The position numbers and the translations under genes are program-made. From Dongshaea marina (GTDB lineage Bacteria > Pseudomonadota > Gammaproteobacteria > Enterobacterales > Aeromonadaceae), in NCBI RefSeq assembly GCF_003072645.1, contig NZ_CP028897.1:560001-624000 (forward strand): 64,000 nucleotides of DNA, read 5' to 3'. The first letter of the stretch is position 1. Every line of letters starts with the position of its first letter. A model generated the notes under the pieces. That model ran no database searches. It worked only from the letters and a program-made list of their open reading frames with translations, and was not told the origin of the DNA. This document shows, in pieces, positions 2 to 52,499 of this stretch.

Positions 2-1020
2 GGTATTCGACCCTTCCTCGGGGATGTGGGGCAGGGGGCTTTGACTCTCTTTACCATACTGTTTTTTGTTATCGCGATGTCGCTGGCGTTTAACCAGGGA
101 AAGCTACTGGATGCTGTGGGCAAGGTGCTCACCCCGCTGCTGATTCTGCTACTTATTGTGCTGGCGGTGGCGGTACTTGTGGCTCCTCAGGGGGGAATAC
201 CAACACCCGAGGGGGCTACGTGGAGCGCCCCTTCAGTACCGGATTTCTGGAGGGGTACAATACCATGGATACCTTCGCTTCCCTGATGTTCGGCATGCTG
301 ATCATCGATCTTCTCAAAGAGCGGGGGATTAGCGATCGCATGCAACTCTTTAAATACCTGGCTCTTTCAGGACTGATCGCCGCCTGTGGCCTGGCATTTG
401 TGTATGTGGCTCTTTTCTACCTTGGCGGGACCAGCGAGGGAGTGATCGCCAATGCCAATAACGGTGGACAGATCATCTCGGCCTATGTGGTGGCCCTGTT
501 TGGTCAGCCCGGCCTATGGATCCTGGCAGCGATTGTGGTGCTTGCCTGCCTGACTACTGCGGTGGGGCTACTTTCTGCCTGCTCAGATTTTTTCCATAGC
601 CTGTTTCCAAAAATTGCCTATCGTCACTGGGTGTTGTTGTTCGGGGTACTGAGTGCTCTGGTGGCGAATATCGGGCTCAGCGAACTGATCAAGCTTTCCT
701 TCCCGGTTCTGGTGCTCTGTTACCCACTGGCTATCTCTTTGGTGATGTTGACCTTCCTCGAGGGCTGGTTTGGCTGTCCGAAGCGAACATTTCGTCTGGT
801 ACTGCTGGTGACCCTGGTATTTGGCGCCATTGATGGAGTTCGAACCATCCCCAAGGTGTTTGAGGGGGCCCCCCAATGGATGCTGATGCAGGGGTTAGAG
901 TACCTGCCACTCTTTGATGCCGGGCTTGCCTGGTTGCTCCCCACAGCTCTTGCCATCATATTGTCGCTACTCTTTATGCGAAGGCCCCATGACGCCCCTC
1001 CTGGTGACCAGGAGGGCTAG
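2..1020 (+). CDS. brnQ: Branched-chain amino acid carrier BrnQ, 5'-truncated by the window and frameshifted
   Basis: Inner-membrane Na+-coupled carrier for Leu, Ile and Val (LIVCS family). The reading frame is open from base 2, so the N-terminus lies outside the window. The first frame carries the PGKLLD-like segment seen here as NQGKLLDAVGKVLTP. The second frame resumes with GYNTMDTFASLMFG, which matches the GYLTMDTLGAMVFG stretch of E. coli BrnQ, and continues through hydrophobic helices to the usual C-terminus. The two frames meet at a run of five G at 211-215; a sixth G would give an uninterrupted E-G-G-Y-V reading. A GC-rich hairpin overlaps the last codons. Family assignment is firm; whether the break is real or a base-calling error is not decided by the sequence alone, but the second is more likely given the other breaks in this window. 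Confidence 0.85.
996..1016 (+). terminator. GC-rich hairpin at the 3' end of brnQ
   Basis: CCCTCCTGG and CCAGGAGGG form a perfect nine-pair stem around a TGA loop, overlapping the last codons of brnQ. No clear T-run follows, so this is only a candidate terminator. Confidence 0.35.
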
Positions 1021-2343: not shown

Positions 2344-2862
2344 TTATGCCTCTTTTGCTTGCTGCTGGAGCTGCTTCAGCCACTGCTCCAGGCGCTCATC
2401 GGTGAGATCATACTGGGTTGCCTCATCCAGAGCCAGGCCCACAAATTGACTCTTATCTTCGGTGAGTGCCTTGGAGGCTTCAAACTGATACTGCTCATCA
2501 TTGGGCCAGTAACCGATAAAGCGACAGCCTGTTTTTTGCAGCCGCTGGTGAAGCATGCCCATCGCATCCTGAAACCACTCATCATAGCCCGCCTGATCAC
2601 CCAACCCGAAAAGGGCAACGGTATGACCGGAGAGATCCAGGCTATCCAGAGCTTCCAGCTGATCTTCCCAGTCCGGCTGGTATTCACCAAAGTCCCAGGT
2701 GGAGATCCCGAGGATCAACAGAGGGTAATCCAGCATTCGCTGGACATCAGTGTCCTTGATGTTGTGGATATGAACCTGGTCGGCTCCCAGTTGATCGCGG
2801 ATCTTTTCTGCCACTATCTCGGTATAGCAGGTACTGGAGCCGTAAAACAGACCAATTTGCAT
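2344..2862 (-). CDS. fldB: Flavodoxin FldB
   Basis: Short-chain FMN-binding electron carrier of 172 residues. The N-terminal phosphate-binding loop region reads GLFYGSSTCYTE, nearly identical to E. coli FldB, and the isoalloxazine-flanking segments STWDFGE and GLGDQAGYDEWF are in place; the extra segment of long-chain flavodoxins (YWPNDEQYQFEAS) is also present. FldB is a stationary-phase, SoxRS-linked flavodoxin in E. coli. There it lies beside and divergent from xerD; here roughly 15 kb of accessory genes separates the two. It converges on the SPOR lipoprotein gene. Assignment to FldB rather than FldA rests on the C-Y-T loop and the overall resemblance. Confidence 0.9.
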   Translation of the reverse strand: MQIGLFYGSSTCYTEIVAEKIRDQLGADQVHIHNIKDTDVQRMLDYPLLILGISTWDFGEYQPDWEDQLEALDSLDLSGHTVALFGLGDQAGYDEWFQDAMGMLHQRLQKTGCRFIGYWPNDEQYQFEASKALTEDKSQFVGLALDEATQYDLTDERLEQWLKQLQQQAKEA

Positions 2863-5236: not shown

Positions 5237-5258
5237 CTGTCATTAAAACGTCATAATC
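5237..5258 (+). promoter_or_regulatory. PHO-box-like PhoB site before the phosphoesterase/P19 operon
   Basis: Two heptamers in direct repeat, CTGTCAT (5237-5243) and ACGTCAT (5248-5254), are separated by TAAA and followed by AATC. This is the 11-base-period layout of PhoB boxes. The first heptamer matches the consensus exactly and the second at five of seven positions. A possible -10 element, TATGCT, begins at 5265, six bases beyond the box, which is the arrangement in PhoB-dependent promoters where the box replaces the -35. Confidence 0.65.
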
Positions 5259-5284
5259 AGGCTCTATGCTAGCTCGGACTGAAC

Positions 5285-5306
5285 GGCGGCTGAACCAGCC
5301 GCCTTT
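5285..5306 (+). terminator. Hairpin in the leader of the phosphoesterase operon
   Basis: GGCGGCTG and CAGCCGCC form a perfect eight-pair stem with an AAC loop, followed by TTT. It can terminate transcripts from the upstream SSS gene. It also lies downstream of the proposed PhoB promoter, so it may sit in that operon's 5' leader. Confidence 0.5.
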
Positions 5307-5332
5307 GGATTTGCCGACAGCTAGGATCTTTT

Positions 5333-6850
5333 ATGACACGGACTTTTAAGCCTGCTCTGCTGAGCGTTTCTCTTGCCTTTTCTCTTTGTGCTGTAGTAAG
5401 CCCTTATGTTGCCGCCCATCCCGTTGCTGAAAAGCAAAGCTGGAGCAAGGCTTCACACACTTCAACCCCAATTAAGCATCTGGTGGTTATTTTTGATGAG
5501 AACATCTCTTTTGATCGCTATTTTGCCACCTATCCCCATGCGACAAATCCCAAAGGGGAGCCTGTATTTATTGCCAGGGCCGGAACGCCTCCGGTCAATG
5601 GCCTGACCCATCAACTGCTAATCAACAACCCCAACCGGGTGAATCCGTTTCTGCTGACACGCAACAAAGAGCCATGCGATCAGAACCATGGCTATGAGGC
5701 TGAGCAGGATGCCTACAACGGCGGGCTGGTCAATCAATTCCTGAGCGCGACCGGAAATACCAGTTCCAAGGCTTGCCAGAGAGAGGTGATGGGCTATTAC
5801 GATGGCAACACGGTGACGGCGCTGTGGAACTATGCGCAGCATTTTGCGATGAATGACAACTCCTACGGTACCATCTTTGGTCCCTCAACCCCCGGAGCGC
5901 TCAACCTGATTGCAGGGCAAACAGGCCCGGCGTTGCCAAAAGATACCCCGGATGTGGAGAGCGGCAACCTGGTGGGGGATATTGATCCGCGCTTTGATGA
6001 TTGTTCCTATAACGATGTCGAGAAAGCCAAGGGGGCAGAGCTTGCAACCTCAGTGACCGATGGCCTGGTGTATATCAAGGGCAAAAATATTGGCAACCTG
6101 CTCAATCAAAAAGGGGTGACCTGGGGCTGGTTTGAGGGTGGTTTTGACCCCAGTAGTTATACGGCGGCGGGAGTTGCGCGCTGTGATACCAGCAGCCATA
6201 ACCGGTTTGGTGGGGCTGCCAAAGATTATATCCCGCACCACGAGCCCTTCCAGTATTACCTGTCTACCTCGAACCCTCACCATCTTCCACCCAGCAGTAT
6301 TGCCATGGTAGGCAAGACCGACAGGGCTAATCATCAGTACAGCCTGAAAACCTTCTGGAAGGCGGCCGACAGTGGCAACCTGCCTGCGGTGAGCTTCCTT
6401 AAGGCTAAGGCGGTGGAGGATGCCCACGCCGGCTACTCGAATCCGCTGGATGAGCAAAGCTTCCTGGTGCGTACCATCAACCGTCTGCAGCAGCTACCCA
6501 GCTGGAAAAATACCGCGGTGATCATCGCTTATGATGACTCCGATGGTGACTATGATCATGTGATGCCACCGAAAAACCACTTCGCTAACCATCAGGGTCG
6601 CAGCGGCTATGGGCCCCGCCTCCCTCTGCTGGTGATCTCTCCCTACGCCAGGCAAAACTATGTGGATCACACCCTGACCGATCAGAGCTCAGTGCTGCGT
6701 TTTATCGAAGATAACTGGCAACTGGGACGTTTGGGGAAAGGTTCCATGGATGCGCATTCAGGCCTGCTCACCCATATGTTTGACTTCAAAACCGATAAGC
6801 CGGCTCCCAAGCTAATGCTGGATCTGAAAACCGGTGAAGTGATCTCCTGA
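5333..6850 (+). CDS. Secreted phosphoesterase (PF04185, acid phosphatase / phospholipase C type)
   Basis: Exported hydrolase of phosphate esters, 505 residues with a signal peptide ending near A-A-H. The catalytic domain starts at KHLVVIFDENISFDRYF, where the D-E-N supplies metal ligands in this superfamily. Residues around GPSTPGALN are where the nucleophilic Ser/Thr is expected, and AYDDSDGDYDHVMPP holds the second D-D metal motif and a conserved His. All key motifs are therefore present and the enzyme looks active. Substrate (phospholipid, phosphomonoester or other) is not predictable. A PHO-box-like site precedes it, consistent with induction on phosphate starvation. It is the first gene of a run that continues with an FtrD-like ferredoxin, two P19-like proteins and a diverged paralogue of itself. 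Confidence 0.85.
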   Translation: MTRTFKPALLSVSLAFSLCAVVSPYVAAHPVAEKQSWSKASHTSTPIKHLVVIFDENISFDRYFATYPHATNPKGEPVFIARAGTPPVNGLTHQLLINNPNRVNPFLLTRNKEPCDQNHGYEAEQDAYNGGLVNQFLSATGNTSSKACQREVMGYYDGNTVTALWNYAQHFAMNDNSYGTIFGPSTPGALNLIAGQTGPALPKDTPDVESGNLVGDIDPRFDDCSYNDVEKAKGAELATSVTDGLVYIKGKNIGNLLNQKGVTWGWFEGGFDPSSYTAAGVARCDTSSHNRFGGAAKDYIPHHEPFQYYLSTSNPHHLPPSSIAMVGKTDRANHQYSLKTFWKAADSGNLPAVSFLKAKAVEDAHAGYSNPLDEQSFLVRTINRLQQLPSWKNTAVIIAYDDSDGDYDHVMPPKNHFANHQGRSGYGPRLPLLVISPYARQNYVDHTLTDQSSVLRFIEDNWQLGRLGKGSMDAHSGLLTHMFDFKTDKPAPKLMLDLKTGEVIS

Positions 6851-6858
6851 CTGAGAGT

Positions 6859-6890
6859 GGGGGCTGCCTGTGAGCAGCCTCCCTCTTCTT
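6859..6890 (+). terminator. Hairpin plus T-rich tail between phosphoesterase 1 and the ferredoxin gene
   Basis: GGGGGCTGC pairs with GCAGCCTCCC (one G-T pair) around CTGTGA, followed by the T-rich TCTTCTTTTG. This may attenuate read-through from the phosphoesterase to the following genes. It covers the in-frame GTG at 6870, so a later start for the ferredoxin is preferred. Confidence 0.5.
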
Positions 6891-6905
6891 TTGTGTATTC
6901 ATTTA

Positions 6906-8330
6906 ATGGACTTTATCTCGATGTGGGTTAACTCTGTTCAACTTCGAGCTCAGCTCGGGCTACAGAACTGCTTGCTGAGGCTCAGGCCAGCGATTCCCTA
7001 CCTGCAGGGGATGATGCTGTTAGCTCTTGTAGGATTACTACTGATCCCGCTATTCGGTCAGGCTCCCATCTACCAGTGGCAGACGCCCTGGAACAATGGT
7101 CAGCTTTTTAGTGAGTGGGTCTTGTGGGGAGTCTGGTATCCGGGAACCCTGCTCTCGGTATTGCTGGTGGGTCGGTTTTGGTGTGGCATTCTGTGTCCCC
7201 TGGGAGCCCTCAGTGAGTGGGTAAGCCGGGTTGGCGCTCAGTTCAGGCTACCGGGCTGGCTCAGGCATCCGATCGCACCGGCACTGAGCTTTATGCTGGT
7301 GACTCTGTGGGCACAGACCCTGGATGTTCGCGATGATCTCAGATCGGCACTGCTGCTGTTTGGGGTGGTGTTTGCCCTGGCGGTTGGCTGTGGCCTGCTG
7401 TTTGGTAGCAGCACAGCGGTGGGGCGGCGGGCCTGGTGCCGTCATCTGTGCCCGATAGGCTCAGTGTTGGGGGTCTTCTCGAGGTTGGGGGTGATGAGCC
7501 TGGAGCTGCTGCGTCCCTCGACAACTGCGGAGGGGTATCGGGAGCAGGGGATTTGTCCTACCAGCATAGAGCTTCGAACTAAGCAGAGCTCCCGGCATTG
7601 CATCAAGTGTGCTCGCTGCATCAAGCCTCAATCCCGGGGAGGGTTAGAGGTGACACTGCGTCGCCCCGGCACTGAGATCAAGGGGATTGAACGGCATGCC
7701 CCCTGTGGTGCAGAGCTGGCTTTTATCTGGTTTGCACCAGGCCTTGCGATCGCGGGTTTTATCTGGAGTGTCACCCCTCTTTATATTCAGCTGCGTCAGG
7801 GGCTTGGCCAGTGGGGAATGAGTCAGCACTGGTATGGACTGTTTGCCCGGGGGCCCTCCTGGTTGATGAACCAGAATGCCAGCATCGACCAACACTATCT
7901 GTGGTTGGATTTTTTCAGCATTACCTTGTTTATGTTAGGGGCGGCTCTGGTGTTGGCTCTGCTTCTCGGTGCCTGCTCCCTGCTGGGAGCCTGGGCCATG
8001 GGGCGAATGGAACAGTTGCCACTTTCAAAGAGGTTGACCCTGGTCGGTTATCAGTTTGCCCCCCTTGCCATGCTGTGTATTTTGCTGGGCCTTGGAAGCA
8101 CTCTGTTTAGCTCCCTGAAATCGGCTTTCGGACCCTGGCTGATCTATCTGGAGCTTGGACTCTTGCTGATGGCTCTGCTGTTTAACCTGTGGATCTCCGC
8201 GCGCTGGCTGCTCCTTAAAAAATTGAATCACTGGCGCCTGGGGCTAAGCTTTACGGCGATCCTGATCGGCTGCCTGGTGATTAGCCTGGTGACGTTGTGG
8301 AGCATCTTCCCCGCTTATCAGCCAGGATAA
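6906..8330 (+). CDS. Membrane-bound 4Fe-4S polyferredoxin (NapH/FtrD-like)
   Basis: Predicted inner-membrane electron-transfer protein of about 474 residues. It has several transmembrane helices and cysteine motifs typical of the NapH/CcoG/FtrD group: WCGILCPLGALSEW and WCRHLCPIGSVLG in loops after helices, then HCIKCARCIKP as a ferredoxin-type cluster site. Proteins of this kind pass electrons through the membrane, and in FtrABCD iron-uptake systems such a ferredoxin accompanies a P19-type protein; two P19-like genes follow directly here. No FtrC/Ftr1 permease is in the window. The C-terminal third adds three or four further helices. An upstream in-frame GTG (6870) lies inside a hairpin, so ATG 6906 (or ATG 6921) is preferred; neither has a strong Shine-Dalgarno sequence. 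Confidence 0.75.
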   Translation: MDFISMWVNSVQLRAQLGLQNCLLRLRPAIPYLQGMMLLALVGLLLIPLFGQAPIYQWQTPWNNGQLFSEWVLWGVWYPGTLLSVLLVGRFWCGILCPLGALSEWVSRVGAQFRLPGWLRHPIAPALSFMLVTLWAQTLDVRDDLRSALLLFGVVFALAVGCGLLFGSSTAVGRRAWCRHLCPIGSVLGVFSRLGVMSLELLRPSTTAEGYREQGICPTSIELRTKQSSRHCIKCARCIKPQSRGGLEVTLRRPGTEIKGIERHAPCGAELAFIWFAPGLAIAGFIWSVTPLYIQLRQGLGQWGMSQHWYGLFARGPSWLMNQNASIDQHYLWLDFFSITLFMLGAALVLALLLGACSLLGAWAMGRMEQLPLSKRLTLVGYQFAPLAMLCILLGLGSTLFSSLKSAFGPWLIYLELGLLLMALLFNLWISARWLLLKKLNHWRLGLSFTAILIGCLVISLVTLWSIFPAYQPG

Positions 8331-8352
8331 GCCGAATCGGAGTAATGAGAAA

Positions 8353-8847
8353 ATGAATAGATTTATCCGGGCAGGCATTCTTTGTAGCCTGCTCTTTTGC
8401 GGAGTCGCCTCATCGGCTTCCCTGGAACTTGGAAGCAAGGATTCATTCGGCATGCACCTTGTGAATGGCGTCGAGAGCGAAGGGGGGACGTTTGTGCTTT
8501 GGAGCCGCCTCAACGCCAACGCGATGAACCCCAATGGATTTATCACCAATGACTTTATTCCCTATTGTGTTATTGGCTATAAGCTGCAAAAGCTTGGCAG
8601 TGACTGGCATACCTCGGGCAGGGCGGTGATGCGCCTGACCCAAACCGGGCCTGAGTATGGGATGCAGGTTGGACTGGATGGCCCCGGAGTATACCGCTGG
8701 AGTATCCATTATCTTCCACCCAGTGCCGGTGGCTTCTATCGACACACGGATCATGCCACCGGCGTTGAGCCCTGGTGGCCTGCCTTTAAGCTTGATTACC
8801 GATTCACTGTGACCCGACAGGGACAGCTGGAGGGCACACACTCATGA
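8353..8847 (+). CDS. P19-like periplasmic metal-binding protein, copy 1 (PF10634)
   Basis: Exported protein of 164 residues with a signal peptide ending near A-S-S-A. The fold is recognised from the P19/Tp34/FetP pattern: NPNGFITNDFIPYCVIGYKLQKLGSD, GLDGPGVYRW and YRHTDHATGVEPWW all align with C. jejuni P19. P19 proteins are dimeric periplasmic proteins that bind copper and support iron uptake. This copy keeps the R-H-T-D histidine but lacks the usual D-V-H-L-E segment (here FVLWSRLNA), and the usual M-V-A-S-D-G-P-H-Y-G reads RLTQTGPEYG, so the Met and His ligands are gone. It starts 22 bases after the ferredoxin gene, and its end overlaps the next start by four bases, so it is in the same operon. 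Confidence 0.75.
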   Translation: MNRFIRAGILCSLLFCGVASSASLELGSKDSFGMHLVNGVESEGGTFVLWSRLNANAMNPNGFITNDFIPYCVIGYKLQKLGSDWHTSGRAVMRLTQTGPEYGMQVGLDGPGVYRWSIHYLPPSAGGFYRHTDHATGVEPWWPAFKLDYRFTVTRQGQLEGTHS

Positions 8848-9364
8848 AACTATGGGGAATATTTTTTGGTTGCATCTGTATGGTTTCTCATGTCTTTGGG
8901 ATGAATGTGGTATTTGGCCCGGATGTGGGGATCCATGGGATGAAGGTGGGGGCAAGTTATATTCAGGGAGTCACCATGTCGCCGATGATGAAGGGCATGC
9001 CTCACAACGCAGATATCCATCTTGAGACCGATGTGCATGCCTTGCCCGGAAATCCACAGGGATTTTCGGCCACTGCCTGGATCCCCGGGCTGAAGATCCA
9101 CTTTGTTCTGAGTAAGCCCGGAACCAACTGGCATAAGGAGGGGATTATCTTCCTATGGTGGCCCAGGGAGGCCCTCATTATGGGCTGAATATCAGGCTCG
9201 ATGGTCCCGGCCATTACCTGCTGACCAATGACTACTATCCGCCCACGGCGAATGGCTTTTTTTCACTAAAGCAATCCGGGCTGGGCGTCTACCCCTGGTG
9301 GAAGCCTTTTAGCCGTCACTATGCATTTGATTTTTTCGGGGCAGGTAAACATGGCGGCTATTAA
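8844..9364 (+). CDS. P19-like periplasmic metal-binding protein, copy 2 (PF10634), frameshifted
   Basis: About 173 residues when the frame is restored. A signal peptide is followed by a Met-rich stretch (VTMSPMMKGMPHNADIHLETD) that matches the metal-binding N-terminal part of P19 and contains its H-x-E. After the break the frame reads PMVAQGGPHYG and GLNIRLDGPGHY, again as in P19, so Met and His ligands are retained. The R-H-T-D motif is replaced by FSLKQSGLG. The frame changes at a run of four G (9140-9143); a fifth G gives W-H-K-E-G-D-Y-L-P-M-V, which fits the family. It overlaps the first P19-like gene by four bases and the second phosphoesterase gene by 14, which implies translational coupling. 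Confidence 0.7.
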
Positions 9365-10819
9365 AAAGTTACTTCCGCTGTTTGCTGCCTTGATGCTGGC
9401 AGGTTCGGCGCACTCACAGCTAAGACCGCAGACGCCGGTCAAACACCTGGTGATCCTGATGCTGCAGGATCAAAGCTTTGATCGCTATTTTGGCCATTAT
9501 CCGCTGGCGAAAAATCTGCCCGGTGAAAACCCATTTCAGGCTCTGCCCGGAACTCCAAAGGTGGATGGTTTCACCTCGGTATTACTCAAGCATAATCCGA
9601 ACTTGTCGAATCCGTACCGGATGGCTCCGGGGAGCCGACCTGTGATCTCGGGTATGGTGTCTATGCACAAAAGCGCTCTTACAACCATGGGCGTAACAAC
9701 ATGTTTATCTGGAAGGATTTTGATACCAGCAGTGGCATCAATGATGATGGCTGTTTTCCCCAGTCGGTGATGGGCTACTACGATGGTAACACGGTGACGG
9801 CGCTGTGGAATTATGCTCAGCACTATGCGATGGCGGATCACCTGTTTGCCACGGATTACTCAAGTTCTGCGGGAGGGTTGATTGATCTCATCGCCGGGAC
9901 GACTCAGGGGGTCAGACCCAGGGTGCTTCCCGGGGTGAGCTTTAAGGATCTATTACTGGAAAATAATCCGCCGCAGTTTGATGATGCCAGCCGGGGGAAA
10001 TTTAAGGTCTGGGTTGATCGCACCAATATCGGTCAGCTTCTCAGCAAGCATGACGTGAGCTGGGGATTTTTTGCCGGAGGTTTTACACCCTCAGGCTATA
10101 GCCAGTCAGGAACGGCGCTTTTTGATAAGCGCAGCCTGAATAGTCAGGGGTCTTTGGTGGGTGACTATGAGCCAACCAGTGATCCCTTCCAATATTTTAA
10201 AGGGACGGCTAACCCCCACCATTTAGCCCCGGATTCGCTGGACAGGATAGGACTGAGCGGCCGGGCGAATCACCAATACGATCTGAGATTACTGTGGAAA
10301 GCATTAGCGGCGGGTAAGCTCCCGGCGGTCAGCTTTGTTTCCCCCGTTGTTGGGCAAAACGGCCATGTGGGGCGCTCATCTCCCCGGGACGAGCAAAAGT
10401 TTATCGTCGCAACAGTCAATCGGCTGATGCGCTCTTCAGTCTGGCCCTCGACAGCAATTATGCTGGTGTGGAGCAACTCTAATGGCTGGTATGATCACGT
10501 GACGCCGCCCAAGGCGCCCAAGGGGATGGACGGGACTGGCTATGGTCCCCGCTTACCCTTTGTGGTGATATCTCCCTGGGCGCGATCAAACTTTGTAGAG
10601 CACAGCATGCTGGATCAGAGCTCAGTGCTACGCTTTATCGAGTATAACTGGGGCTTAAGTTACCTGGGAAAGCAGACTCCCGACCGTTATGCCCATAGCC
10701 TCAGAGGGATGTTTGATTTCCACTCCCAACGAGTACAAAAGCCGTTACTCCTTGATCCTAATACCGGGCTGGTCAGAACAACGACTAAAGGCAGGGATCT
10801 GGCCCAACAGAAAACTTAG
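9351..10819 (+). CDS. Second phosphoesterase-family protein (PF04185), diverged and frameshifted
   Basis: Paralogue of the phosphoesterase at 5333, about 489 residues with a signal peptide (LLPLFAALMLAGSAHSQ). Long segments are shared, for example VMGYYDGNTVTALWNYAQH, DPFQYF and DQSSVLRFIE. Key motifs differ: the expected E-N before SFDRYF is Q-D, and the D-D of YDDSDGDYDHV is S-N (WSNSNGWYDHV). Loss of both metal motifs suggests a non-hydrolytic role, perhaps binding or partnering the active copy; this is inference. The frame breaks at a run of four G (9629-9632); a fifth G restores A-P-G-E-P-T-C-D, matching the E-P-C-D of the paralogue. The ATG at 9351 has AGGT just upstream and lies inside the end of the P19-like gene. 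Confidence 0.75.
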
Positions 10820-10833
10820 TCGTCACCGAATGA

Positions 10834-11720
10834 TTACTCTTTGATGAACGCAGGGGCTGGCGGGATCTCTTTGGCTGTCCCTGTGTTTTTTTTCCTGATA
10901 AGCATCGGGCCTATGATGAGCGCGATTCCCGCCAGGGTCCACCAGTCCGGTATCTCATGGAAACCTATGATGCCGGCGAGGGTGACAAACACCAGCCCGG
11001 AATACTCGGCCAGGGCGATTTGGCTGGCGTGAGCCCGCTTGTAAGCGGCAATGGCGCACCCCTGGTAGCCTAAGTTAAACAGGGTGCTGGCCAGTACCCA
11101 GCCCACTCCGGACCAGCTCAAAGGCTGCCAGTCCCTGATGGCGAGTAGTGCAGCAAAGGGAACCGAGAGCAGCACAGTCCACAGCAGGGTGGTGATGAGT
11201 GGCTCATCAGAGGGGATTAACCTGACCAACAGATTATAAAGGGCCAGCGAGATGGCGCAGCCAAGGGCGGCAAGGGCCACAAAATTGATCGCCACCGGGC
11301 GCAGCACCACCAGCACACCGGCAAAGCCGATGCAGGTGGCGATGATCTTAAGTAGTCCGGGACGCTCTTTGAGAAAGAGAATCGCCAGGGGAGCATCAGC
11401 AACGGGGCCGCGTAAAAGATCGCATTCGCTGTCGCCAGGGGCAGCCCATGGATGGCGATCACCGCACAACCGCTACCGGTGAGAACCAGCAGGGCGCGCA
11501 GCATGGTGACACCGGGGCGGCGGATGGTCCTTTTTTCCCGGGGAAGCTTTAGCCAGAATGGAGCCAGCAGGAGCAGGCTCAGCAGCTGGCGGATCACAAC
11601 ATACTGGTAGGTGCCGACCGAACCCGCCATCAGCTTGATAGCGACATCAGACATGGCAACCGACAGATTTCCCAGGACTAACAGCAGCAGCCCCAGCGTC
11701 AGGGGGTTCAGGCCGGACAT
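10834..11720 (-). CDS. EamA/DMT-family transporter, frameshifted
   Basis: Inner-membrane drug/metabolite transporter of about 295 residues with two EamA repeats and roughly ten helices. The N-terminal half reads through TANAIFYAAPLLM and the C-terminal half resumes with LAILFLKERPGLLKIIATCIGFAGVLVV, the usual end of the first EamA repeat. The join is at a run of four G on the plus strand (11388-11391); one further base gives L-L-M-L-P-L-A-I-L-F-L-K-E. The start overlaps the end of elaA by 13 bases, so the two are probably co-transcribed. Substrate unknown. It converges on the second phosphoesterase gene with 14 bases between. Confidence 0.75.
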
Positions 11721-52477: not shown

Positions 52478-52499
52478 CTGTCATCGCACTGTCATATAG
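52478..52499 (+). promoter_or_regulatory. PHO box before the Ser-rich repeat protein gene
   Basis: Two perfect CTGTCAT heptamers (52478-52484 and 52489-52495) are separated by CGCA and followed by ATAG, the exact PhoB tandem-repeat layout. A TTAAAT-like -10 lies about seven bases downstream. The start codon is about 125 bases further on. Confidence 0.75.

What the first reader, a model, noticed from the sequence alone, without database searches (positions are those of the whole stretch)
5237..10819. PHO-box-headed operon that couples phosphoesterases to an FtrD/P19-type metal module
A PHO-box-like site lies upstream of a compact gene run: phosphoesterase, membrane 4Fe-4S polyferredoxin, P19-like, P19-like, second phosphoesterase, with overlaps of 4 and 14 bases at the last junctions. 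P19 proteins and FtrD-type ferredoxins are known from iron (Ftr/P19) uptake, normally with an Ftr1/FtrC permease, which is missing here. I know of no described system that joins these to PF04185 phosphoesterases under PhoB. One hypothesis is release of phosphate, and handling of the metal freed, from metal-phosphate or phospholipid sources. The combination is seen; the function is inference.
Basis: partly seen in the sequence, partly recalled or inferred. Interest (0 to 1): 0.75.

Follow-up and report, generated by a model that had tools for sequence, protein, structure and literature searches.

The report
Phosphate-starvation operon joining phosphatases and iron-handling proteins
A five-gene operon with a phosphate-starvation control site couples a working phosphatase and an apparently dead twin of it to a rewired electron- and metal-handling module, and the same operon recurs in unrelated marine bacteria, which points to an undescribed way of tying metal chemistry to phosphate scavenging.

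Summary
The gene run is real and conserved. The order phosphatase (PLC1), FtrD-like ferredoxin (FER), P19a, P19b, phosphatase-like (PLC2) recurs intact in six other genomes (Vibrio sinus, a second genome of its genus, Marinomonas flavescens, two M. spartinae records, Celerinatantimonas diazotrophica). No Ftr1 permease was found at any copy. A PHO box precedes PLC1 in six of seven copies, a weaker one in the seventh. (1) In this window P19b and PLC2 are each broken by a frameshift. (2) In every copy PLC2 has lost Glu43, Asp386, Asp387 (metal) and His287, His288 (substrate) of AcpA: a predicted pseudophosphatase, yet under selection (dN/dS 0.07 in one pair). (3) The two P19s look split: P19a lost His44, Glu46, Asp48 and His97 but keeps His127; P19b keeps the former and lost the His127 motif (the His itself in five of seven). 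PLC1 keeps all nine active-site residues. Best reading: a PhoB-controlled organophosphate-scavenging operon in which an FtrD/P19 module serves the phosphatase rather than iron import. Architecture and control site are well supported; metal, substrate and the role of the degenerate copies are inference.

The parts
5237..5254 (+). PHO box (two 7-nt half sites, 4-nt spacer)
   Evidence: Halves match CTGTCAY 7/7 and 5/7; best site in the 250 nt before PLC1, background expectation 0.001 per region; counterparts before PLC1 in the six other copies, weaker in one
5265..5270 (+). -10-like hexamer TATGCT, 10 nt after the PHO box
   Evidence: Read; 4 of 6 match to TATAAT; the five relatives have a TA-hexamer (3 of 6) at the same spacing
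5333..6850 (+). PLC1: AcpA-type phosphatase (PF04185), active site complete
   Evidence: Pfam E 9e-82; PDB 2d1g E 3e-180; nine of nine AcpA active-site residues kept
6853..6893 (+). Terminator-like hairpin with T-rich tail between PLC1 and FER
   Evidence: MFE -24.2, z -4.0 against mononucleotide shuffles
6906..8330 (+). FER: FtrD-like membrane 4Fe-4S protein (start uncertain; GTG 6870 possible)
   Evidence: Fer4_5 and NapH/MauN hits; eight cysteine columns shared with 41 other FER proteins
8353..8847 (+). P19a: P19-fold protein that lost His44/Glu46/Asp48/His97 and kept His127 (FetP numbers)
   Evidence: PF10634 E 9e-23; ligand columns; AlphaFold model pLDDT 81.5 matches FtrA/P19 structures
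8844..9364 (+). P19b: P19-fold protein that keeps His44/Glu46/Asp48/Met90/His97; frame changes near 9140-9155 in this copy
   Evidence: PF10634 in two pieces
9351..10819 (+). PLC2: predicted pseudophosphatase of the AcpA family; frame changes near 9629-9653 in this copy
   Evidence: PF04185; Glu43, His287, His288, Asp386, Asp387 replaced; 14-nt overlap with P19b

Best explanation
This is a PhoB-controlled, horizontally spread operon for scavenging phosphate from organophosphates. PLC1 is the working phosphatase outside the cytoplasm, an AcpA-type serine enzyme with a metal site. FER, P19a, P19b and PLC2 form a helper machine derived from the FtrABCD/P19 ferrous-iron system but freed from its permease: FER carries electrons across the inner membrane, P19a and P19b act as a heterodimer that together supplies the metal ligands which one canonical P19 subunit carries alone, and PLC2, a degenerate copy of the phosphatase, is the docking or scaffold subunit that links the P19 pair to PLC1 or to the metal-bound substrate. 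The likeliest job is loading, or keeping in the right redox state, the metal of PLC1 during phosphate starvation. Shown here: conserved gene order, no Ftr1 at the locus, PHO box, intact PLC1 site, loss pattern of PLC2 and P19a, purifying selection on all five genes in one genome pair, short gene overlaps, and a hairpin after PLC1. Inferred: PhoB binding, the heterodimer, electron transfer, the docking role of PLC2, weaker expression of the helper genes, and metallation as the task. I give about 0.85 to 'PhoB-controlled organophosphate-acquisition operon', about 0.6 to 'the metal module serves the phosphatase pair rather than iron import', and about 0.35 to metal loading or redox care of PLC1 in particular.
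For: Same five-gene order in five named records and one more genome of the V. sinus genus. Among 68 FER-relative loci the 5 with PLC genes are the 5 closest (FER 57-65% identical); none of the 5 shows FTR1 within 10 kb, and none of the 42 loci with FTR1 shows PLC; a repeat with seven FTR1 queries, four of them from the relatives' own genomes, found none in the window, the five loci or the 16 kb of the seventh copy. PHO boxes (control 87); PhoB over its NCBIfam cut-off, and a box of the same 7-4-7 spacing before a pstS-like gene (PF12849) in the same genome. PLC1 keeps 9 of 9 AcpA residues in 6 of 6 aligned copies; PLC2 lost Glu43, Asp386, Asp387, His287 and His288 in 6 of 6 (the seventh copy, read by eye, agrees). 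P19 ligand columns against 50 other P19s. dN/dS 0.018-0.084 for the five genes between the two M. spartinae records. Eight Fe-S cysteines kept and five operon-typical Cys/His columns in FER. Hairpin after PLC1 in all seven.
Against: No expression, binding or enzyme data. The AcpA metal is unidentified in what I read; EDTA is reported to cost AcpA only about 25% of its activity and plant NPC4 none (PMC9837106, passages), so a metal-loading helper may be unnecessary. Eight loci with stand-alone PLC1 relatives show no FER or P19 within the 14-20 kb fetched. PLC2 keeps Ser in the nucleophile column in the window and Thr in the three Marinomonas copies, and Thr is the nucleophile of NPC4, so loss of activity is predicted, not shown. 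In the two Vibrio copies P19b keeps a His in the His127 column, so the split is strict in five of seven. The seventh PHO site is weak (14.0), a score that one of seven stand-alone relatives (G051) also reaches. The PLC2 structure model was too poor to use. P19b and PLC2 are frame-shifted in the window itself.
Confidence: 0.5

Rival explanations
1. Release of phosphate from metal-phosphate or metal-phytate complexes: FER and the P19 pair reduce and take away the metal (Fe3+ to Fe2+), PLC2 binds the complex without cutting it, and PLC1 removes the phosphate. This is.
For: Explains a reductive Fe-S protein, a P19 pair and a non-catalytic phosphoester-binding fold in one scheme. In both M. spartinae records a phytase-like gene (PF13449) lies just upstream of the operon on the same strand.
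Against: The phytase-like neighbour is seen in 2 of 7 copies only; no substrate data; P19 proteins are periplasmic (general knowledge) and many such complexes are extracellular or insoluble.
Confidence: 0.25
2. An iron uptake system like FtrABCD that now uses a permease encoded elsewhere, with the phosphatases stripping phosphate from iron.
For: FER and P19 are relatives of the FtrD/FtrA kit; FTR1-family genes exist elsewhere in the genomes of all five named relatives, weakly in V. sinus (40 bits).
Against: No FTR1 in the window genome and none near any copy; the P19 ligand set is disrupted in both paralogues; the control site is a PHO box. A Fur site was not looked for.
Confidence: 0.12
3. 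A decaying operon: PLC2 and P19a are on the way out, and the frameshifts in the window show the same decay.
For: Two frameshifts in P19b and PLC2 of the window; the EamA gene next door is also split over two frames.
Against: PLC2 and P19a read through in the six other copies and evolve under constraint in the one pair measurable (dN/dS 0.070 and 0.045); after the shifts the window frames stay open and conserved. Decay or sequencing error remains possible for the window copy.
Confidence: 0.08

Closest known systems
FtrABCD / P19-Ftr1 (FetMP) ferrous iron uptake (Bordetella, Brucella, Campylobacter, E. coli F11)
   Same: FtrD-like 4Fe-4S membrane protein with all eight cysteines; P19/FtrA-fold proteins next to it in one operon
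   Different: No FtrC/Ftr1 permease and no FtrB-type gene in the operon; two P19 paralogues with split ligand sets; joined to an AcpA-type phosphatase and its degenerate twin; PHO box
AcpA acid phosphatase (PDB 2d1g; NCBIfam TIGR03397; PF04185)
   Same: PLC1 matches over nearly its whole length with all nine active-site residues
   Different: The AcpA-type relatives looked at here have no FER or P19 nearby; here the enzyme has a degenerate twin and an FtrD/P19 module. TIGR03397 curated cut-off not reached (165.1 of 362.75 bits)
Pho regulon phosphatase genes such as E. coli phoA (recalled)
   Same: PHO box 7-4-7 with a -10-like hexamer 10 nt downstream; PhoB in the genome
   Different: No paper in my listings describes FtrD/P19 genes in a Pho regulon unit

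Membership tests
FtrABCD / P19-Ftr1 iron uptake | Ftr1/FtrC permease (PF03239) | tested here: not met
   0 matches in own genome; none at any of the seven copies by blastp; FTR1-family genes lie elsewhere in the five named relatives
FtrABCD / P19-Ftr1 iron uptake | FtrD-type 4Fe-4S membrane protein | tested here: met
   Eight cysteine columns invariant in 6 of 6 operon and 41 of 41 other FER proteins
FtrABCD / P19-Ftr1 iron uptake | P19/FtrA with the full ligand set (FetP His44, Glu46, Met90, His97, His127; numbers recalled) | tested here: not met
   P19a lacks His44, Glu46 and His97 in 6 of 6; P19b lacks His127 in 4 of 5 aligned copies and in the window piece by eye. In 50 other P19s: His44 49, Glu46, Met90, His97 and His127 50 each
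FtrABCD / P19-Ftr1 iron uptake | FtrB cupredoxin in the operon | tested here: not met
   All five window genes fall in other families; not searched elsewhere in the genome
AcpA-type phosphatase (PF04185) | PLC1: Glu43, Asn44, Asp386, Asp387 (metal), Ser175, His106, His287, His288, His350 | tested here: met
   9 of 9 in 6 of 6 copies; residue roles from PMC6635428 passages
AcpA-type phosphatase (PF04185) | PLC2: the same residues | tested here: not met
   Glu43, His287, His288, Asp386 and Asp387 replaced in 6 of 6. Kept: Asn44 in 1 of 6, His106 in 1 of 5 readable, His350 in 5 of 6; Ser175 column: Ser 1, Thr 3, Glu 1, Val 1
Pho regulon | PHO box in the promoter | tested here: met
   control 87
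Pho regulon | PhoB in the genome | tested here: met
   TIGR02154 338.5 bits, cut-off 296.2; own genome only
Pho regulon | Induction by low phosphate through PhoB | not testable with these tools
   Needs RNA or protein measurements

The most novel reading that the evidence does not exclude
A new class of phosphate-starvation system: a dedicated metal-loading or redox machine for an AcpA-type phosphatase, built from a heterodimeric P19 whose copper/iron site is split between two subunits, an Ftr1-free FtrD electron carrier, and a pseudophosphatase that docks them to the enzyme or its metal-bound substrate.
Probability: 0.3. Interest if true: 0.85.

Novelty: new variant of a known kind. Interest (0 to 1): 0.68.

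Why it matters
It would show that the FtrD/P19 module, known to me only from iron import, can be detached from its permease and tied to phosphate acquisition. It offers a way to ask which metal AcpA-type phosphatases use in the cell and who delivers it. It gives a natural case of a degenerate phosphatase and a degenerate metal-binding protein kept under selection beside their intact twins, with simple tests of function (gene removal in marine bacteria). It also links iron or copper redox chemistry to phosphorus limitation.

Tried and rejected
Rejected: two working phosphoesterases (residue pattern of PLC2). Rejected: chance neighbours (same order in seven genomes). Not found: carriage of the operon on viruses or plasmids (no viral contig matched the FER patterns; 21 plasmid records matched FER, all below 60% identity and none over 80% of its length; PLC1 relatives alone are common there, 142 records, 26 over 80% of the query, all below 60% identity). 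A PHO box before FER was looked for and not found (best scores 11.0-12.0). The PLC2 structure prediction was unusable (pLDDT 44.2). Whether His127 comes from the same or the other subunit in solved P19 dimers could not be checked: three papers asked for by id (the Ftr, P19 and AcpA-inhibitor papers) are not held. Literature: searches returned 0 papers, one search returned 3 of no bearing; listings 33, 35, 41, 42, 64 and 86 showed nothing on this combination. Most subscription papers are not in the library.

Limits of counts. One search used three FTR1 queries by blastp; 8 loci scored as FER+P19 without FTR1 may hold an undetected or cut-off FTR1. The scan is by short exact peptide patterns of one protein and can miss copies (it did not give the seventh copy, found). 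In one search the printed control of 112 upstream regions wrongly included the six PLC1 regions; one search repeats it without them (106 regions: 95% quantile 13.0, three at 14.5 or more, maximum 16.5, which is window ORF 52624). The PHO consensus, the FetP ligand numbers, and the phoA promoter layout are recalled; PDB titles (FetP M90I and E46Q, P19 E44Q, M88I and D92H, FtrA H151A variants) fit the ligand numbers. Of the two other hits of the PHO pattern in the genome, one lies inside a reading frame and one before an ORF with no Pfam match. One search puts Arg in the Met90 column of P19a; a Met stands one residue before it. dN/dS rests on one pair with a simple counting method; the second pair was mostly saturated. 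Trees used the quick method.
Full report
What is in the window. Upstream is CTGTCAT-TAAA-ACGTCAT (5237-5254), then 10 nt and TATGCT. The frames after both shifts stay open and conserved, so the shifts are recent or are sequencing errors. The EamA gene next door (PF00892) is also split over two frames.

Rarity in its own group. The genome has no PF04185 or PF10634 match outside this operon and no FTR1. Among 61 genomes (own, 36 of the same family, 24 of the same order; none of the same genus was offered) a PLC1 relative occurs in the own genome, in 2 of the 24 and in 0 of the 36. In 369 genomes of the class, 22 have PF10634 and 20 a PLC1 relative; the own genome and two others have both, and in those two they lie on different contigs. 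The operon is an accessory unit here.

The operon elsewhere. A pattern-based scan of one genome per species with FER gave 68 loci. The five closest, FER 57-65% identical, are Vibrio sinus, Marinomonas flavescens, two records of M. spartinae and Celerinatantimonas diazotrophica, and all five have PLC1-FER-P19a-P19b-PLC2 in that order with every gene open. Celerinatantimonas has a third phosphatase-like gene after PLC2. Of the 68 loci, 42 have FER, FTR1 and P19, 8 FER and P19, 13 FER only, 5 FER, P19 and PLC; none has both FTR1 and PLC. Flanking genes differ: MFS and GDSL lipase in V. sinus, DnaJ and FKBP in Celerinatantimonas, a vitamin-uptake transporter and a DJ-1 protein in M. flavescens, a phytase-like gene and an EamA gene in M. 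spartinae; that EamA gene gives no blastp match to the one beside the window copy. Patchy presence and changing flanks fit horizontal spread of the whole unit. The PLC1 and P19a trees both pair the window with V. sinus (support 98 and 84).

Control by phosphate. The best site in the 250 nt before PLC1 is a 7-4-7 PHO box, with a TA-hexamer (3-4 of 6 to TATAAT) 10 nt on, in all six sets: scores 14.5-16.0, box start 79-111 nt before the start codon, expected 0.001-0.008 per region. Of 106 other upstream regions in the same stretches, 3 reach 14.5 and the 95% quantile is 13.0 (the control printed had wrongly included the six). In the seventh copy the site is weaker (14.0; two GTCAT repeats 11 nt apart and TATGCT further on). 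In seven stand-alone PLC1 relatives, with 550 nt searched each, the best scores were 10.5-14.0; one (G051) reaches the 14.0 of the seventh copy. In the own genome PhoB scores above its cut-off and a box ATGTCAT-AAAA-GTGTCAT lies before the divergent pstS-like gene. A strict pattern chosen to fit the window site occurs three times in the genome and not once read backwards; the other two places are not clear promoters.

Expression layout. P19b and PLC2 overlap by 14 nt in five of seven copies; in the two M. spartinae copies the ATG is replaced and a GTG start 3 nt on would give 11 nt. P19a and P19b overlap by 4 nt in six and 1 nt in V. sinus. This suggests coupled translation. Between PLC1 and FER all seven have a hairpin (z -2.1 to -5.6 against mononucleotide shuffles), followed by a T-rich stretch in five by eye. 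It could act as a partial terminator, so that PLC1 is made in excess over FER-P19-PLC2. That is inference.

One intact and one degenerate phosphatase. Residue roles come from passages of PMC6635428 and columns from the match to PDB 2d1g. PLC1 keeps Glu43, Asn44, His106, Ser175, His287, His288, His350, Asp386 and Asp387 in 6 of 6 copies; nine other relatives keep them too, with Glu for Asp387 in two. PLC2 in 6 of 6 has Gln for Glu43 and has lost Asp386, Asp387, His287 and His288. Asn44 is kept in 1 of 6, His106 in 1 of 5 readable, His350 in 5 of 6. The Ser175 column holds Ser in the window, Thr in three Marinomonas copies, Glu in V. sinus and Val in Celerinatantimonas; since Thr is the nucleophile in plant NPC4 (PMC9837106, passages), the case for inactivity rests on the metal and histidine losses. 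The seventh copy, read by eye, follows V. sinus. PLC2 still matches the AcpA chain over nearly its whole length (E 6e-117). PLC1, PLC2 and the third Celerinatantimonas gene form one clade (SH-aLRT 99, quick tree) apart from the stand-alone relatives; the third gene groups with Celerinatantimonas PLC1 (80) and lost a different set of residues. dN/dS between the two M. spartinae records is 0.028 (PLC1), 0.084 (FER), 0.045 (P19a), 0.018 (P19b) and 0.070 (PLC2): the degenerate copies are under selection.

Two P19s with split ligands. In 50 P19s from the other FER loci His44 is kept in 49 (one gap), Glu46, Met90, His97 and His127 in 50, Asp48 in 47, Asp94 in 49. P19a lost His44, Glu46, Asp48 and His97 in 6 of 6 and keeps His127 in the motif RH[TI]D.ATGV in 6 of 6. 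P19b keeps His44, Glu46, Asp48, Met90 and His97 in 5 of 5, has Gly for Asp94 in 5 of 5, and lacks the His127 motif in 5 of 5; a His stands in that column in V. sinus only. By eye the seventh copy resembles V. sinus and the window pieces lack the His. The AlphaFold model of window P19a (pLDDT 81.5) matches FtrA/P19 structures (best E 1.6e-10, TM about 0.7): the fold stays while ligands go. The two paralogues together hold what one canonical subunit holds; a heterodimer is the simplest reading but is not shown.

FER. Eight cysteine columns are shared by 6 of 6 operon and 41 of 41 other FER proteins. Cys161, Cys266, His120 and His329 are in 6 of 6 operon copies and 0 of 41 others, Cys455 in 6 of 6 and 2 of 41. 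No solved structure matched FER.

Mechanism. The control site, the complete active site of PLC1 and its signal-peptide-like or lipobox-like N-termini (by eye) make PLC1 a phosphate-scavenging enzyme outside the cytoplasm. The helper genes come from the FtrD/FtrA kit. Copper-bound FtrA of Rubrivivax gelatinosus is reported to oxidise Fe2+ (PMC11966278, passages), so P19-type proteins can do metal redox themselves. With the permease gone and a degenerate phosphatase overlapping P19b, the likeliest target of the module is the phosphatase or its metal-bound substrate. I favour loading or redox care of the PLC1 metal over release of phosphate from metal complexes, but the data do not separate these well.

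Novelty. The parts are known families; the unit is not described in anything that my searches reached (listings; passages read in PMC9837106, PMC6635428, PMC9174327, PMC11966278 and PMC6083913). I file it as a new variant of a known kind, with a real chance that it is a new kind. Checking changed facts (the PHO control, the overlaps, the nucleophile column); it called for no change in the odds.

Noticed in passing
window 10834-11720 (-): EamA transporter gene (PF00892) downstream of the operon is split over two frames (211 and 167 aa), a third probable frameshift within 2.6 kb.
   Followed up: partly
window 26-1020 (+): Branched-chain amino acid transporter (PF05525) at the window start: the matched frame 220-1020 starts at profile position 180, and a coding-like frame 26-286 precedes it, so another frameshift is possible.
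   Followed up: partly
L091:13962-15476: Celerinatantimonas carries a third AcpA-family gene after PLC2, close to PLC1 in the tree and with its own losses (Asn44, His106, Ser175, His288, His350, Asp386).
   Followed up: partly
L090:6946-8112 and L092:6938-8119: Phytase-like gene (PF13449) directly upstream of the operon on the same strand in both M. spartinae records.
   Followed up: partly
window 52478-52495: Second strict PHO-pattern match in the window, before a 273-aa ORF without Pfam match; this upstream region has the highest PHO score of the 106 controls (16.5). Two similar chlorhexidine-efflux-type genes (PF05232) lie on either side on the other strand.
   Followed up: partly
window 2344-2862 (-): Flavodoxin (PF00258) about 2.4 kb upstream of the operon; link to the operon not examined.
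   Followed up: no
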